This document shows, in pieces, positions 44,901 to 52,005 of a DNA stretch of 64,000 nt. A program made the translations under genes and the position numbers. Source of the DNA: Hypomesus transpacificus (taxonomy: Eukaryota > Chordata > Actinopteri > Osmeriformes > Osmeridae); NCBI RefSeq assembly GCF_021917145.1, contig NW_025813730.1:1-64000 (forward strand), written 5' to 3'. Under the pieces are notes generated by a model. The model was not told where the DNA came from, did not search any database, and was given only the letters and a program-made list of their open reading frames with translations. Position 1 is the first letter of the stretch. Every line of letters begins with the position of its first letter.

Positions 44901-47438
44901 GCATCCTGAGTTACAGTAAAACTCACAACCTAAACATGGTGGGTTTTCCCATATCCTGTTTCTGTCCTGTCTTTGACGGCTGTAAACTGTAAACAAGATG
45001 ACCTCTCACAGAGTAAAACATGCCCACCTATTGCTGCAGTGGCCCATACAGGTGGGGCTGTCTTATTCCCAGCCACAGCCACCAGGGTGAGGGCGTACAG
45101 GCTGCCGGGGCTGAGGGAGGTGAAGCCTGACTGGGGAGCAGCATTGCCCATAACCCTGGTGCTGTGGATGTCCCCGCTGCTGCTGTCCCTCAGGGAGAGG
45201 TCGTACCAGTCCACCTGACCCCGGGAGCGGGGCCAGGACACACGCACCCCTGGGGCCCCGGGCTGGCTCTGGGACTGGACCTGCTCCACCACCAGCCTGA
45301 CTGGACCCACTGGGTCTGGGGGAGGGAGGGATACAGAGAGAGAGAGAGAGACAGAAAACACCCAGCTTAGATGCAACATTAACCAACTGTGATGTTTAAT
45401 TGGTGCAGTTGTGATAAGCATTCTTGAAACTCAAGTTGGAAAGTGAATCAAACACCTGTATCTTATAGGAATATGTACATCAGGAAGAAACAGGTTAGTA
45501 TTTTACACAACGGGTCAATAAATACAGAGAGTCTTTGGATTCCGTCTCTGTGCTCATGCAGAAGGCCAGTGGTGGCAGAGATTGAAGGGGGCGATAAGAT
45601 TGTTTTGTTTTCTTAAAAGAATGTTGACATTTTCATGCATGAATCTCAAGTTTGCGAGCCTGGAGAGGAAACAACAGAAACAAAGGCACCTAGGAGCAGA
45701 CCTGGGCGGTGCAACCCTACAACTCAATGTTGAACTTTGACCCTCTCCTACTAATGGCTTCAACTTCTTCCGAATTGCTGAGTTTCAACTCAGCACAACC
45801 TTGAGGGTAATGTCAACTCCTGAACATTCAAGGGAGGGCCACCGAAAAGGCAACAGTACCCTACTGCATATGATCTTAGAAATGTATTGAACAAAAGATA
45901 AACAATGTGCACACGGTTTCCTGTTGAGATCTCCAGGAAATTCTGAGGCCCACTTTCTAAGACAAAAAACAAATCTTCGGGCACTTGGAATGCTCAGGTT
46001 CTTGAGAGCACTCTTTATCTAATCTATCTGTGGCGCGAAAACAAAAAGCGTTGGAGGCCTCCTGTATCCGCTACGGAGAAACAATGCATGACGGAAAGTA
46101 TCTCAGGGGAGCTAGGCCATCAGGCTGGAAACACACACTTGAGACGAGAACGCGAGGGCATTGTCCTCCGCTTCCATCCTCGCGTGATTAGAACCGCGCC
46201 GGGACTCAGATCAGCTGCCAAAGAGGTCAAGACTGTTTCTTGGCAGGACAGGACTCGAGGCCTTGACAATGTACCGAGTACTGTTTGTTAAAAATGGTGG
46301 AAGGACAACAGTTTAGCTGGCACATAATATCAGATTATCACTTTGGTGTAACGTGGGTTACGTTAAAAGTAGACAGGGGTGGGGATTACCGCTATCGATC
46401 TTCTCCCCAAACATCCACCGTTAAAGCGGTGAGTAAGTCTCACAAATTCAAGTATGCTGTCTGCAGTCCAAAACAAACTCTGCTTTATTATGAGGGGTAA
46501 TTTACTTTCATATTAATGATTAAGGTTGGTTCATTGAGGATAGGTTGAAAATTAGTTTATCAAAACAAAAGACTTGGAGCAAACTACTCAATTTCCAGTA
46601 GAGTTATCATAATGTTCTCTGCAATATGCAGCAGACGTGCCATTTCAATGAGCTGCATTCATTACCGAATGTGCTCAACAACAGTTCACAGAGATATCTC
46701 CCTCCAAACTCGAGCTAAACAACTTGGAAGCCATGCTAAAGTATCTCCACATAAATGTAGGCCTACACAATAAATTAAACCATTTTTAAACAAGCATCAT
46801 AAGTTCCTGAGGAACATCTGAGTTATATTTCGAATTGTTTTAATATTCAAATCGTAAATCTATTACGGGCTTAAATTCCGTTTTCTTAATTTGATTTTTT
46901 TTATAGGCCAATCACATTGAAAACCCGTGAAACTAAAACAACATAAACCGTGAAAAATAAACAATTGTGTTCAAAGTTAAATTGCAGATTAGAGTTTACC
47001 TGTGCGCACTGAAACGAACGCGCTCTCTCCGTCAGTCTTGGATATCACTCCAAAATGATGTAACGCCCCAGGCTGGAGGTCCCTGATCTCACAGATGTAA
47101 GCGTTACTGTGTTCTTGATACTGATCGCAGTCCGTTATTTCTGTGCGGTTATCCTCTGAAAACACCGTGAAGATGCATGCATCTCCAGCTGTAGATAGTT
47201 TGATCATAATATAATCCGTGTCTGTGCTGGTCTCTGTCAGGTTAACTGAACACTTCCTTACTGCTGTAGTTTCAACCTGAAGAAAAAACAAGTAACAAAA
47301 AAGCTACAGGTTAGCAAGGAATTTGGTTTTATATTCAAGAAAAGGGTTAACAATCTCGGTAATTAGGCTAGGCCTACTCACCGTGACATAGCTCCATAAT
47401 ATTAAACAAAGCATCAGTTTACGAATTGCATATCTCAT
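20866..47438 (-). CDS. ptprb: Receptor protein tyrosine phosphatase beta (VE-PTP), whole gene span
   Basis: Endothelial receptor phosphatase that in other vertebrates restrains TIE2, VEGFR2 and VE-cadherin signalling. The minus-strand exons assemble as signal peptide, 17 fibronectin type III (FN3) repeats, one transmembrane helix, a juxtamembrane segment and one phosphatase domain. That is the R3-subfamily layout of PTPRB (human 17 FN3, ~1997 residues). My 32 exon lengths total 6102 nt, exactly 2034 codons including stop, giving 2033 residues. FN3 exons are all phase 1-1, and PTP-domain exon phases are 1, 0, 0, 0, 2, 0, 1. A second gene is nested on the plus strand between FN3 exons 7 and 8. 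Exon blocks are listed separately. Family and completeness are very sure; each junction is inferred from splice consensus and homology. Confidence 0.95.
21074..21264. mobile_element. PiggyBac-type MITE with TTAA target sites
   Basis: TTAA at 21074-21077 is followed by AGGCAGGGTAGGT, and at the other end ACTACCCTGCCT is followed by TTAA at 21261-21264. The 183-bp body has 11-13-bp terminal inverted repeats and no coding capacity. TTAA duplication points to the piggyBac superfamily. It lies in the last intron of ptprb. Confidence 0.78.
21921..21990. repeat. Near-perfect 33-bp hairpin with 4-base loop
   Basis: Positions 21927-21953 and 21958-21984 are perfect 27-bp reverse complements around the loop AATA. 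After one C/A mismatch, a further 5 bp pair (21921-21925 with 21986-21990). Located in the ptprb intron between the two exons of the catalytic loop. It could be a young palindromic element, a replication-derived palindrome or a hairpin RNA precursor. Confidence 0.85.
22700..23158. repeat. CCCCATGCCTCCCGTGCC-type minisatellite in ptprb intron
   Basis: About 440 bases of units such as cccccatgcctcccctgcc and cccgtgccccc. The transcribed (minus-sense) strand is very G-rich, with runs of G4-G6 every ~6-9 bases. Begins about 35 bases upstream (sense) of the acceptor of exon 22555-22677. Confidence 0.9.
23560..23645. repeat. Dispersed-repeat fragment
   Basis: Shares cacttctgatccttcatttt, actttccatatgcagtgttt and gtccgctaaatgaatt with the copies at 32030-32105 and 56895-56975. 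In a ptprb intron. Confidence 0.55.
24229..25540 (-). CDS. ptprb: ptprb transmembrane and juxtamembrane exons, with 18-nt micro-exon
   Basis: 25435-25540 encodes the helix [20 protein letters not shown] followed by RQKAHK. 25062-25133 encodes [19 protein letters not shown] and ends in a donor that is repeated downstream. 24420-24437 is an 18-nt micro-exon encoding NRRIS with split codons at both sides (phase 2 to 2), with a good AG before and GTATGT after. 24229-24310 encodes [19 protein letters not shown] and LLSEEYE. Joined, they line up with mammalian GNRKTSCPIK and [15 protein letters not shown], which is the main support for the micro-exon. Confidence 0.85.
24543..25090. repeat. 42-44-bp repeat containing a ptprb splice donor, 13 copies
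   Basis: Thirteen units with cores ccctgacccccatgtgcccc and agaggaggactgtgtcttac. The unit at 25061-25090 includes the end of exon 25062-25133 and its donor; twelve intronic copies repeat the exon end, and all but the last repeat GTAAG. Confidence 0.9.
25139..25400. repeat. AGAACACCAGAC-type tandem repeat
   Basis: About 260 bases of 12-19-bp units (agaacacagaacaccagac). It sits immediately upstream (sense) of the acceptor of ptprb exon 25062-25133, separated from the previous exon by only ~35 bases. Confidence 0.88.
25792..26906 (-). CDS. ptprb: ptprb membrane-proximal FN3 (repeat 17), three exons
   Basis: Exons 26757-26906 ([19 protein letters not shown]), 26217-26556 ([16 protein letters not shown], then CDRT...[12 protein letters not shown]) and 25792-25889 ([19 protein letters not shown]). 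Phases 1-1, 1-2, 2-1. The middle exon carries an extra Gln/Asp/Gly-rich run ([19 protein letters not shown] and more) between the cysteines where mammals have a short KF-type link. The run is encoded by a ctggtcctgg repeat at about 26265-26355. Confidence 0.92.
25903..26045. repeat. 31-bp tandem repeat (acacacctccatgttcacac), ~5 copies
   Basis: Five diverged copies in the ptprb intron, starting about 13 bases upstream (sense) of the acceptor of exon 25792-25889. Confidence 0.8.
26635..26740. repeat. GT-rich repeat with ttagagcttgct, 4 copies
   Basis: Short intronic array next to, but not including, the donor of ptprb exon 26757-26906. Confidence 0.75.
27134..28302 (-). CDS. ptprb: ptprb FN3 repeats 15-16
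   Basis: Exons 28018-28302 ([29 protein letters not shown]) and 27134-27412 ([38 protein letters not shown]). The sequences follow mammalian PTPRB closely, including the variant PHKRY turn and the MIDR end. Each exon is preceded by an expanded pyrimidine tract on the sense strand. Confidence 0.94.
27420..27765. repeat. GGGGGGCAGCAG/AAGGAGGGCAG minisatellite
   Basis: Roughly eight long units of gcagcaggggggcagaagga. Pyrimidine-rich on the ptprb sense strand and ending at the 3' splice site of exon 27134-27412 (first exon base 27412). Confidence 0.9.
28308..28590. repeat. GGTGAGGAGG repeat and 21-bp cagtactacagttaaacac repeat
   Basis: 28308-28500 is ggtgaggagg/gaggatgagg sequence directly upstream (sense) of the acceptor of exon 28018-28302. 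28505-28590 holds four copies of a 21-bp unit. Confidence 0.85.
28635..32843 (-). CDS. ptprb: ptprb FN3 repeats 8-14 (seven exons)
   Basis: Exons 32580-32843, 31633-31896, 31034-31297, 30486-30749, 29864-30133, 29067-29330 and 28635-28901; five are exactly 264 nt, and all are phase 1-1. Motifs: [51 protein letters not shown] (near identical to mammalian PTPRB), LVPGRLY and LTPGRKY. The near-equal length and symmetric phase mean that skipping or gaining an exon keeps the frame. The donor of exon 29864-30133 lies inside a 24-bp repeat array. Confidence 0.94.
29010..29057. repeat. GAATGAATGAGT repeat
   Basis: Four copies of a 12-bp unit beginning about 8 bases after the donor of ptprb exon 29067-29330. 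Confidence 0.75.
29530..29875. repeat. 24-bp minisatellite containing a ptprb splice donor, ~14 copies
   Basis: Unit cttacgtgtgcctgagaggc plus four bases. Most units carry a GTAAGAC donor (sense strand), and the array runs up to the true donor of exon 29864-30133. Two variant units with ttttacacacgcct are 144 bp apart, showing a six-unit higher-order period. The sense frame stays open through the array (TRKTRLSG per unit). Confidence 0.92.
30134..30270. repeat. (GGGA)n simple repeat
   Basis: About 130 bases of pure gggagggagg immediately upstream (sense) of the acceptor of ptprb exon 29864-30133, so a (CCCT)n pyrimidine tract on the sense strand. Confidence 0.93.
30325..30430 (+). repeat. 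Possible tRNA-like SINE fragment
   Basis: Contains tagttcagttgagtatttaa and a B-box-like ggttcaaatcccc about 30 bases later, followed by AT-rich sequence. Looks like a degenerate tRNA-derived head; no clear tail. Confidence 0.4.
31910..32105. repeat. 20-bp tandem repeat and dispersed-repeat fragment
   Basis: 31910-31990: four copies of gagaggtgaggaagtgatta. 32030-32105 matches the dispersed family at 23560-23645 and 56895-56975 (motifs cacttctaatccttgatt, actttccacaagcact, gtctgct). Confidence 0.65.
32095..32560. repeat. 19-bp minisatellite (tgctacaggtcatgtgacg), ~24 copies
   Basis: Very homogeneous array with gacg/gaca/gatg variants at one site, ending ~20 bases after the donor of ptprb exon 32580-32843. 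It does not include the exon end. Confidence 0.95.
32855..33190. repeat. ~43-bp minisatellite (gtaggactggggggtgatgg), ~8 copies
   Basis: Units with gtaggactggggggtgatgg and gagagagagagtagag. CT-rich on the sense strand and directly upstream of the acceptor of ptprb exon 32580-32843. Confidence 0.9.
33191..33882. other. ptprb intron, 5' flank of the nested gene
   Basis: No coding sequence seen. Near the right end lie atgcaaat (33779-33786, an octamer-type motif) and ttacgtcataa (CRE-like, about 33765), both upstream of the presumed start of the nested gene. Confidence 0.4.
33883..33890 (+). promoter_or_regulatory. TATA-like box of nested gene
   Basis: tatttaag, about 55-60 bases before a strong splice donor (caattcag then gtgagt at 33947), which would end a short untranslated exon 1 (about 33915-33946). 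A second TATA-like ttatatcg is at 33911. Confidence 0.35.
34871..39959 (+). CDS. Unrecognised protein: nine RPLPPTP repeats plus long charged helix (nested in ptprb intron)
   Basis: Exons: untranslated ~33915-33946; 34842-34903 (ATG at 34871, [11 protein letters not shown]); 35028-35354; 35628-39959 with stop. All joins are phase 0, giving 1563 residues. Exon 3 encodes a predicted coiled coil ([26 protein letters not shown]). Exon 4 begins with nine repeats of 62-78 residues, each starting (E/Q)[10 protein letters not shown], then [24 protein letters not shown] and [15 protein letters not shown] fits the class I SH3 ligand pattern +xxPxxP. The C-terminal ~550 residues are Lys/Glu/Arg-rich ([16 protein letters not shown]), typical of a coiled coil or single alpha helix. 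No enzyme, signal peptide or membrane segment. I do not recognise a named gene; a multivalent SH3 scaffold is inference only. Confidence 0.72.
35745..37700 (+). repeat. Coding tandem repeat of nested gene (9 units, A/B higher order)
   Basis: DNA units of about 186-231 bp. Two kinds alternate: A ([15 protein letters not shown], some ending [12 protein letters not shown]) and B ([16 protein letters not shown]). A-B pairs at about 36380-37015 and 36820-37230 are almost identical, indicating recent duplication of a ~441-bp dimer. Frame is preserved in all nine copies. Confidence 0.92.
39985..40737 (+). pseudogene. Decayed tandem copy of the nested gene's 3' end
   Basis: After the stop at 39957-39959 the sequence again resembles 39290-39960: aggaacaaggcggaggaaaa, aataaagatgaatgtggaag, gaggatgagaggagg, and the end ttaaccctaatgtaaagatg (compare ccccgatgtaaaggtg), but with frameshifts and stops. 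A 46-bp direct repeat (aaccaaggaggagaggcgag...) occurs twice at 40564-40655. Probably 3' untranslated or relic sequence. Two donor-like sites (GTGAGC at 40706, GTAAGA at 40734) leave room for further splicing. Confidence 0.55.
40738..41923. other. 3' flank of nested gene within ptprb intron
   Basis: A 3' splice site (ttttttcctccag) at 41021-41033 opens a possible last exon, 41034-41125, with the open frame [20 protein letters not shown] then AAKEKAPKD and stop. Poly-A signals AATAAA lie at 40994 and 41306-41311. A 14-bp repeat gaatgacatgaaat is at 41140-41235. Nothing else supported. Confidence 0.4.
41924..45315 (-). CDS. ptprb: ptprb FN3 repeats 2-7 (six exons)
   Basis: Exons 45028-45315, 44517-44774, 43593-43856, 43178-43435, 42615-42890 and 41924-42190, one FN3 repeat per exon, all phase 1-1. 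Each shows the family pattern: a W in strand B/C (e.g. VRVSWPR, LRASWVR, LKATWSP), a GxxxYxV or DSYLVTL core, L(T/V)PGxxYxV, and an end such as GRTG. N-glycosylation sequons are frequent (NVT, NGS, NLS, NES). The exon 42615-42890 is preceded by a 39-base poly-C (sense) tract and the exon ending at 42190 by a GA-rich 230-bp tract. Confidence 0.93.
42192..42425. repeat. GGAGAGGGGAGGGGGCGGA purine tract
   Basis: About 230 bases, purine-rich on the plus strand, directly upstream (sense) of the acceptor of ptprb exon 41924-42190. Confidence 0.9.
42899..42937. repeat. Poly-G tract (39 bases)
   Basis: Uninterrupted G run, poly-C on the ptprb sense strand, ending about 8 bases from the acceptor of exon 42615-42890. 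Length is probably unreliable in the assembly. Confidence 0.9.
44085..44362. repeat. CA-rich and GT/G-rich microsatellites
   Basis: 44085-44240 acacagccatacac repeats; 44315-44362 (GT)n followed by G16. Intronic in ptprb. Confidence 0.9.
45316..46999. other. ptprb intron 2
   Basis: About 1.7 kb between exon 2 and the second FN3 exon. No exon, RNA gene or clear repeat recognised. Short open frames on both strands lack splice support. Confidence 0.5.
47000..47438 (-). CDS. ptprb: ptprb exons 1-2: signal peptide and first FN3-like domain
   Basis: Exon 1 (47382-47438) encodes [19 protein letters not shown], a good signal peptide, and ends with a phase-0 donor GTGAGT. Exon 2 (47000-47276) begins [16 protein letters not shown] and encodes the divergent N-terminal FN3 with four cysteines, as in mammalian PTPRB where the domain begins with an ERCNF-type segment. 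It ends phase 1. The upstream sequence contains atatatttaatatt, a possible TATA element. The same exon 2 acceptor could also take the lectin-mucin exon at 48566, which also ends in phase 0. Confidence 0.82.

Positions 47439-52005: not shown

What the first reader, a model, noticed from the sequence alone, without database searches (positions are those of the whole stretch)
46999..52005. Lectin-mucin exons spliced in phase onto VE-PTP: possible new long ptprb isoform or a new lectin-mucin gene
Upstream of ptprb on the same strand, three exons (51954-52005, 50954-51355, 48566-50319) encode a signal peptide, a CysR/ricin-like Cys-rich domain and ~585 residues of mucin. Together they are 2208 nt and end in a strong phase-0 GTAAGT donor with no stop or membrane segment. 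The acceptor of ptprb exon 2 is phase 0, and ptprb's own signal-peptide exon (47382-47438) also ends phase 0. The two N-termini would therefore be interchangeable, giving either a 2033-residue VE-PTP or a ~2750-residue form with a lectin-mucin tip. I know of no described VE-PTP with such a tip. A mucin ectodomain on a receptor phosphatase has a parallel in CD45.
Basis: partly seen in the sequence, partly recalled or inferred. Interest (0 to 1): 0.88.

Follow-up and report, generated by a model that had tools for sequence, protein, structure and literature searches.

The report
Fish VE-PTP's lectin-mucin long isoform
A fish gene for a blood-vessel signalling enzyme carries three extra starting exons that most likely give it a lectin-like tip on a long mucin stalk; such a tip is already known from the longest human form of the protein, while the stalk may be the fish's own elaboration.

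Summary
The exons are real. A signal-peptide exon, an exon coding a Cys-rich domain and a 1754-nt S/T/P-rich exon join into 2208 nt without a stop, ending in a strong phase-0 donor. The domain passes Pfam's cut-off for CysR_MRC2_N, the ricin-like domain of the mannose-receptor family (34.5 bits, cut-off 27). Before ptprb exon 2 I found only short open tails and one weak membrane-like reading; the exon 2 acceptor is phase 0 and scores best there. Most likely this is an alternative 5' end of ptprb. [quoted passage not shown] Residue 57 of the fish model is also Asp. What may be new is the 584-residue mucin stalk between tip and FN3 rod, partly built of 18- and 21-nt repeats. No transcript data were available, the protein database was off and genome search did not complete, so the joint, homology with the human domain and the stalk's presence in other fish are untested.

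The parts
51954..52005 (-). Exon A of the long 5' end: ATG and signal peptide (MDYLFIVLFMFLRFSST), ends phase 1
   Evidence: ATG context AAAAT-ATG-G, no TATA-like hexamer in the 400 nt before it
50954..51355 (-). Exon B: CysR / ricin-like domain, phase 1 to phase 1
   Evidence: Pfam CysR_MRC2_N E 2.1e-8, 34.5 bits over cut-off 27; Ricin_B_lectin 24.9 bits, under its cut-off 29; best PDB matches FcRY (E 2.5e-5) and PLA2 receptor (E 0.0037)
48566..50319 (-). Exon C: 584-residue S/T/P-rich mucin stalk with 18-nt and 21-nt in-frame arrays; ends phase 0
48560..48565 (-). Donor GTAAGT of exon C
   Evidence: score in top 0.23% of 3980 GTs
47382..47438 (-). Alternative first coding exon of the short form (own leader), ends phase 0; TATAAA 104 nt before its ATG
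47000..47276 (-). ptprb exon 2, first FN3 domain; phase-0 acceptor that both 5' ends could use; ends phase 1
   Evidence: acceptor in top 0.05% of 3952 AGs; phase-0 reading open for 95 residues
21340..46999 (-). Rest of ptprb: FN3 exons (phase 1 to 1 in the model), transmembrane segment within 25580-25434, phosphatase pieces from about 24200 to 21340; exons after 28018 and the last boundary were not assembled
   Evidence: Pfam fn3 (five exons given) and Y_phosphatase; PDB PTPRB

Best explanation
The three exons are an upstream alternative 5' end of ptprb, the fish counterpart of the longest human PTPRB isoform with its Ricin B-type lectin domain. Two promoters are inferred: one before 52005 gives signal peptide, CysR domain, mucin stalk and then the usual FN3 ectodomain, membrane segment and phosphatase; one before 47438 gives the short form with its own leader. 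Both splice to the phase-0 acceptor at 47276 (shown: sites, phases and open frames; inferred: that the joint is made). The stalk, once O-glycosylated, would hold the CysR tip far beyond the FN3 rod, so that the long form has another reach and another ligand surface than the short one with the same phosphatase (inferred). Whether the tip binds sulfated sugars, as the mannose receptor's CysR does, or something else, is open.
For: Open 736-residue reading over three exons with GT/AG borders. CysR domain above Pfam cut-off. Same strand as ptprb; between the donor and exon 2 the exon 2 acceptor scores 11.1, the next best site 6.8; of 75 AGs there, the three that open an unspliced membrane-like reading score 2.1, 1.7 and 0.2. 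[quoted passage not shown] Asp57 of PTPRB also in a table of PMC12785865; the two papers give different substitutions); the fish model has Asp at residue 57, in QWEWTKD of the domain. Body is ptprb. Mild: in 21 units of the 21-nt repeat, differences from the majority codon fall 4, 4 and 26 on codon positions 1, 2, 3 (24 codons synonymous, 6 not); all 4 arrays that TRF reports in exon C have periods divisible by 3, against 41 of 91 entries elsewhere.
Against: No transcript was seen. Phase agreement has a 1 in 3 chance. Five acceptor-like sites scoring 5.1 to 6.8 lie before exon 2 and open tails of only 10 to 21 residues, so a spliced secreted form is possible. The 23 units of the 18-nt repeat show no third-position excess (3, 8, 9; 6 synonymous, 10 not); repeat units were picked by residue similarity (5 of 7, 4 of 6), which favours synonymous differences, and copies are not independent. 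TRF entries overlap and some lie in other coding sequence. The genome is full of minisatellites, so the stalk's length may be mutational. One identical residue at position 57 could be coincidence; the human sequence could not be fetched, so homology of the lectin domains is not shown by alignment.
Confidence: 0.83

Rival explanations
1. A separate membrane-anchored lectin-mucin gene: exon C splices to its own small exon near 47542-47437, which reads a hydrophobic stretch (GIYLIFFVLFI) and stops.
For: Three AGs (47542, 47530, 47524) open a phase-0 reading with a 19-residue hydrophobic segment and a short tail.
Against: Acceptor scores 2.1, 1.7 and 0.2, against 5.6 or more for the 17 acceptors of the model (several of those were chosen partly by score, so the contrast is not fully independent); 38% of 3952 AGs reach 2.1. 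In 228 of 400 dinucleotide shuffles of the stretch at least one such reading arises, in 137 with an acceptor of 2.1 or better. Human PTPRB isoform 3 has its lectin domain within PTPRB. Only unspliced continuations were examined; a membrane exon reached over a further intron is not excluded.
Confidence: 0.04
2. A secreted lectin-mucin: either the donor is read through, ending 13 residues later, or exon C splices to a small terminal exon before ptprb; possibly a minor form beside the ptprb-joined one.
For: In-frame stop 13 codons past the donor; ATTAAA at 47798 and 47470 and AGTAAA at 48486 and 48441. Five acceptor-like sites (48455, 47931, 47848, 47676, 47607; scores 5.1 to 6.8) open tails of 10 to 21 residues before a stop.
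Against: No AATAAA between 48566 and 47000. The donor is among the strongest 0.23% of GTs and the exon 2 acceptor, at 11.1, scores well above those five. The published human isoform has the domain within PTPRB.
Confidence: 0.08
3. Decayed exons: the long 5' end worked in an ancestor and is no longer transcribed in this fish.
For: No transcript evidence at hand; the mucin exon is overgrown with tandem repeats.
Against: Reading frame open over 2208 nt, GT/AG borders intact, start codon in a fair context.
Confidence: 0.05

Closest known systems
Human PTPRB (VE-PTP) isoform 3, the longest isoform
   Same: N-terminal Ricin B-type lectin domain with Asp57 in the same phosphatase (PMC9900141, passages; Asp57 in PMC12785865, passages)
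   Different: The passages seen mention no mucin stalk. From memory the human isoform is about 218 residues longer than the canonical one, which leaves no room for a 584-residue stalk; no call confirmed this.
CysR domain of the mannose-receptor family (MRC1, MRC2/Endo180, PLA2R, DEC205; FcRY of birds)
   Same: Domain family by Pfam; best PDB matches FcRY and PLA2 receptor, mannose receptor weaker (E 0.053)
   Different: The carrier is a receptor phosphatase with FN3 domains rather than FN2 and C-type lectin domains. Sugar-pocket residues were not compared.
CD45 (PTPRC)
   Same: Receptor phosphatase with a mucin-like outer region that some isoforms lack (PMC10815196, passages)
   Different: CD45's mucin part is spliced out (by skipping internal exons, recalled) and is followed by a Cys-rich domain and three FN3; here the choice would be between first exons, and the lectin-like domain sits outside the mucin. 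Analogy, not kinship of the mucins.

Membership tests
PTPRB / VE-PTP (R3 receptor phosphatase) | PTP domain most like PTPRB | tested here: met
   PDB chain 2h02_A, PTPRB, 236.6 bits; PTPRS 186.8, PTPRJ 148.8; a 136-residue piece was used
PTPRB / VE-PTP (R3 receptor phosphatase) | Many FN3 domains, mostly one exon each with phase 1 borders | tested here: met
   Pfam fn3 (five exons given); phase-1 exon choices, made by hand; rule stated in PMC5336234 (passages)
PTPRB long isoform (human isoform 3) | N-terminal ricin-type lectin domain with Asp57 | tested here: met
   CysR_MRC2_N passes its cut-off, Ricin_B_lectin does not; residue 57 of the fish model is Asp
PTPRB long isoform (human isoform 3) | Sequence homology of the lectin domain to the human isoform | not testable with these tools
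   Protein database switched off; no human sequence at hand
PTPRB long isoform (human isoform 3) | Transcript joining lectin exons to PTPRB exon 2 | not testable with these tools
   No RNA data; only splice-site and phase evidence
CysR domain of the mannose-receptor family | Profile match above curated cut-off | tested here: met
   34.5 bits against 27, residues 19-134
CysR domain of the mannose-receptor family | Beta-trefoil fold | tested here: inconclusive
   Single-sequence model has mean pLDDT 34.5 and says nothing
CysR domain of the mannose-receptor family | Pocket for 4-sulfated GalNAc as in the mannose receptor | not tested
   Pocket residues given in PMC10914487 (passages), lost in Endo180 and DEC205 (passages); no alignment to the mannose receptor was printed or 42
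Mucin domain | Long S/T/P-rich, often repeated, Cys-poor stretch | tested here: met
   62% S+T+P over 584 residues, one Cys, four TRF arrays; glycosylation itself not testable

The most novel reading that the evidence does not exclude
This fish makes, by choice of first exon, a CD45-like VE-PTP in which a mannose-receptor-type CysR domain is carried on a 584-residue mucin stalk beyond the FN3 rod, so that a tissue can switch the height and ligand surface of one phosphatase; the mucin stalk is a fish innovation on an old vertebrate long isoform.
Probability: 0.6. Interest if true: 0.5.

Novelty: new variant of a known kind. Interest (0 to 1): 0.37.

Why it matters
A 2024 review still describes R3 phosphatase ectodomains, VE-PTP's included, as formed solely of FN3 domains (PMC10815196, passages), while a lectin-tipped longest isoform is on record in human and, by this evidence, coded in a fish. 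That points to an old, little-studied form of a phosphatase of vessel biology. The human lectin domain holds a coding variant mentioned in a myopia linkage study and an osteoporosis study, in both cases with weak support. If the stalk is real, it would be a natural test of size exclusion for R3 phosphatases.

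Tried and rejected
Structure prediction of the CysR exon from one sequence gave mean pLDDT 34.5 and was discarded; no fold search was run. PDB matches to WDR5 cover 35 residues and are taken as spurious. A scan of viral contigs for the CysR domain found no relative (1 stretch matched a pattern, none confirmed). NCBIfam gave nothing useful for the domain. 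A separate membrane exon and a secreted form were weighed.

Papers. PTPRB+isoform+ricin: 2 papers, both looked into; PMC9900141 relevant, PMC9578707 not. PTPRB+mucin-like+lectin: 2 papers; PMC10815196 read as passages, where the mucin passages concern CD45, RPTP-alpha and IA-2; PMC12259444 seen only in the listing. ptprb+zebrafish+isoform+exon: 13 papers listed, passages of two read: PMC5336234, whose main text holds neither 'lectin' nor 'mucin' (supplements not read), and PMC8558974 (nothing on isoforms). Broad searches: 509 papers with 15 listed, 66 with 20 listed, 857 with 10 listed, 19 with 15 listed, 6 listed; nothing on a mucin-bearing PTPRB in what was listed. Recalled accession numbers of the human isoform: 0 papers. 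That a mucin stalk on VE-PTP is unreported rests alone, in open-licence papers, with capped lists.

Full report
What is there. On the minus strand, upstream of ptprb, three exons join without a stop into 2208 nt: a signal-peptide exon (52005-51954), an exon coding one Cys-rich domain (51355-50954) and a 1754-nt exon (50319-48566) coding 584 residues that are 62% Ser, Thr and Pro. With splice-site weights typed from general knowledge, the exon B and C donors and the exon C acceptor rank in the top 0.4% of GT or AG sites of the strand; the exon A donor (top 2.5%) and exon B acceptor (top 4.2%) are moderate.

The domain. Exon B passes the Pfam cut-off for CysR_MRC2_N, the N-terminal ricin-like domain of the mannose-receptor family, over 116 residues; Ricin_B_lectin is hit below its cut-off. 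By sequence the nearest solved relatives are the yolk-sac IgY receptor (E 2.5e-5) and the phospholipase A2 receptor (E 0.0037). It has six cysteines in the matched stretch and a seventh at residue 148. A single-sequence structure model failed.

The mucin. TRF finds four arrays in it, periods 21, 18, 12 and 18 nt, all divisible by three; of 91 entries outside the exon (overlapping entries counted apart, period 4 or more) 41 are. In 21 units of the 21-nt repeat 24 of 30 changed codons are silent; in 23 units of the 18-nt repeat 6 of 16. Units were picked by residue similarity, which favours silent changes, and copies are not independent, so this is mild support for coding. The window is rich in minisatellites, and the parts between and before the arrays (about 130 and 160 residues) may be the older core.

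Where it goes. The exon ends in a phase-0 GTAAGT; reading on gives 13 residues and a stop. Between it and ptprb exon 2, five sites score 5.1 to 6.8 as acceptors and open tails of 10 to 21 residues; three weak sites (2.1 or less) of 75 AGs open a short hydrophobic reading, and 228 of 400 shuffles do likewise. The acceptor of ptprb exon 2 (47276) is phase 0 and scores 11.1, in the top 0.05% of AGs. The short form's leader exon (47438-47382) ends in phase 0 too, with a TATAAA 104 nt before its ATG; no such hexamer lies within 400 nt before the long form's ATG. One gene with two 5' ends is the simplest reading. Agreement of phases by itself would be 1 in 3, and a secreted side form is not excluded.

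The carrier is ptprb: a phosphatase piece matches human PTP beta chains well above other receptors, and the FN3 exons fit phase 1 borders, as described for R3 phosphatases (PMC5336234, passages). Exons after 28018 were seen as open pieces but not assembled.

What is known. [quoted passage not shown] another paper lists the same variant at Asp57 of PTPRB, with a different substitution (PMC12785865, passages). In the fish model residue 57 is Asp, inside the CysR domain. So a lectin-tipped PTPRB is on record in human, and the fish exons are most likely its counterpart, though no alignment could be made. A 2024 review describes R3 ectodomains as formed solely of FN3 domains (PMC10815196, passages). 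In the passages and capped listings that I saw no mucin stalk on VE-PTP is mentioned.

How it would work (inferred). Choice of promoter sets the N-terminus. The long form adds a stalk that, when O-glycosylated, should stand far out from the cell, and ends in a CysR domain. In the mannose receptor this domain binds 4-sulfated GalNAc; in Endo180 and DEC205 that ability is lost (PMC4635314, PMC10914487, passages), so sugar binding here must be tested. Effects could be exclusion from close contacts, as argued for CD45 (PMC10815196, passages), or binding of a ligand in the glycocalyx.

Limits. No RNA data, no protein database, no genome search. The joint to ptprb, the homology with the human domain and the spread of the mucin exon among fish are inferred.

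Noticed in passing
35625-39956 (+), possibly with 34965-35384 (+): A 1444-residue stop-free stretch on the opposite strand inside a large ptprb intron, with repeated PLPPTP motifs and long internal repeats (219 and 441 nt), preceded by a coiled-coil-like open stretch (by eye); no Pfam match for either and no NCBIfam match for the first. Possibly a nested gene.
   Followed up: partly
26270-26355 (-): A 6/24-nt array adds a run of Asp/Gln/Gly residues to a ptprb ectodomain exon near the membrane, between two cysteines; VE-PTP's 17th, membrane-proximal FN3 domain is reported to bind VE-cadherin (PMC10815196, passages), but that this is the same domain was not tested.
   Followed up: no
whole window: Very many minisatellites: 91 TRF entries (overlapping ones counted apart) with period 4 or more outside exon C, some right beside ptprb exons, as at 31904-32001 and 42194-42420.
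   Followed up: no
52983-53321: A 36-nt unit repeated 9.5 times at about 99% about 1 kb upstream of the long form's first exon.
   Followed up: no
3799-4542 (-): Open frame resembling the start of an aminopeptidase N-like membrane protein (name from recall, not searched).
   Followed up: no
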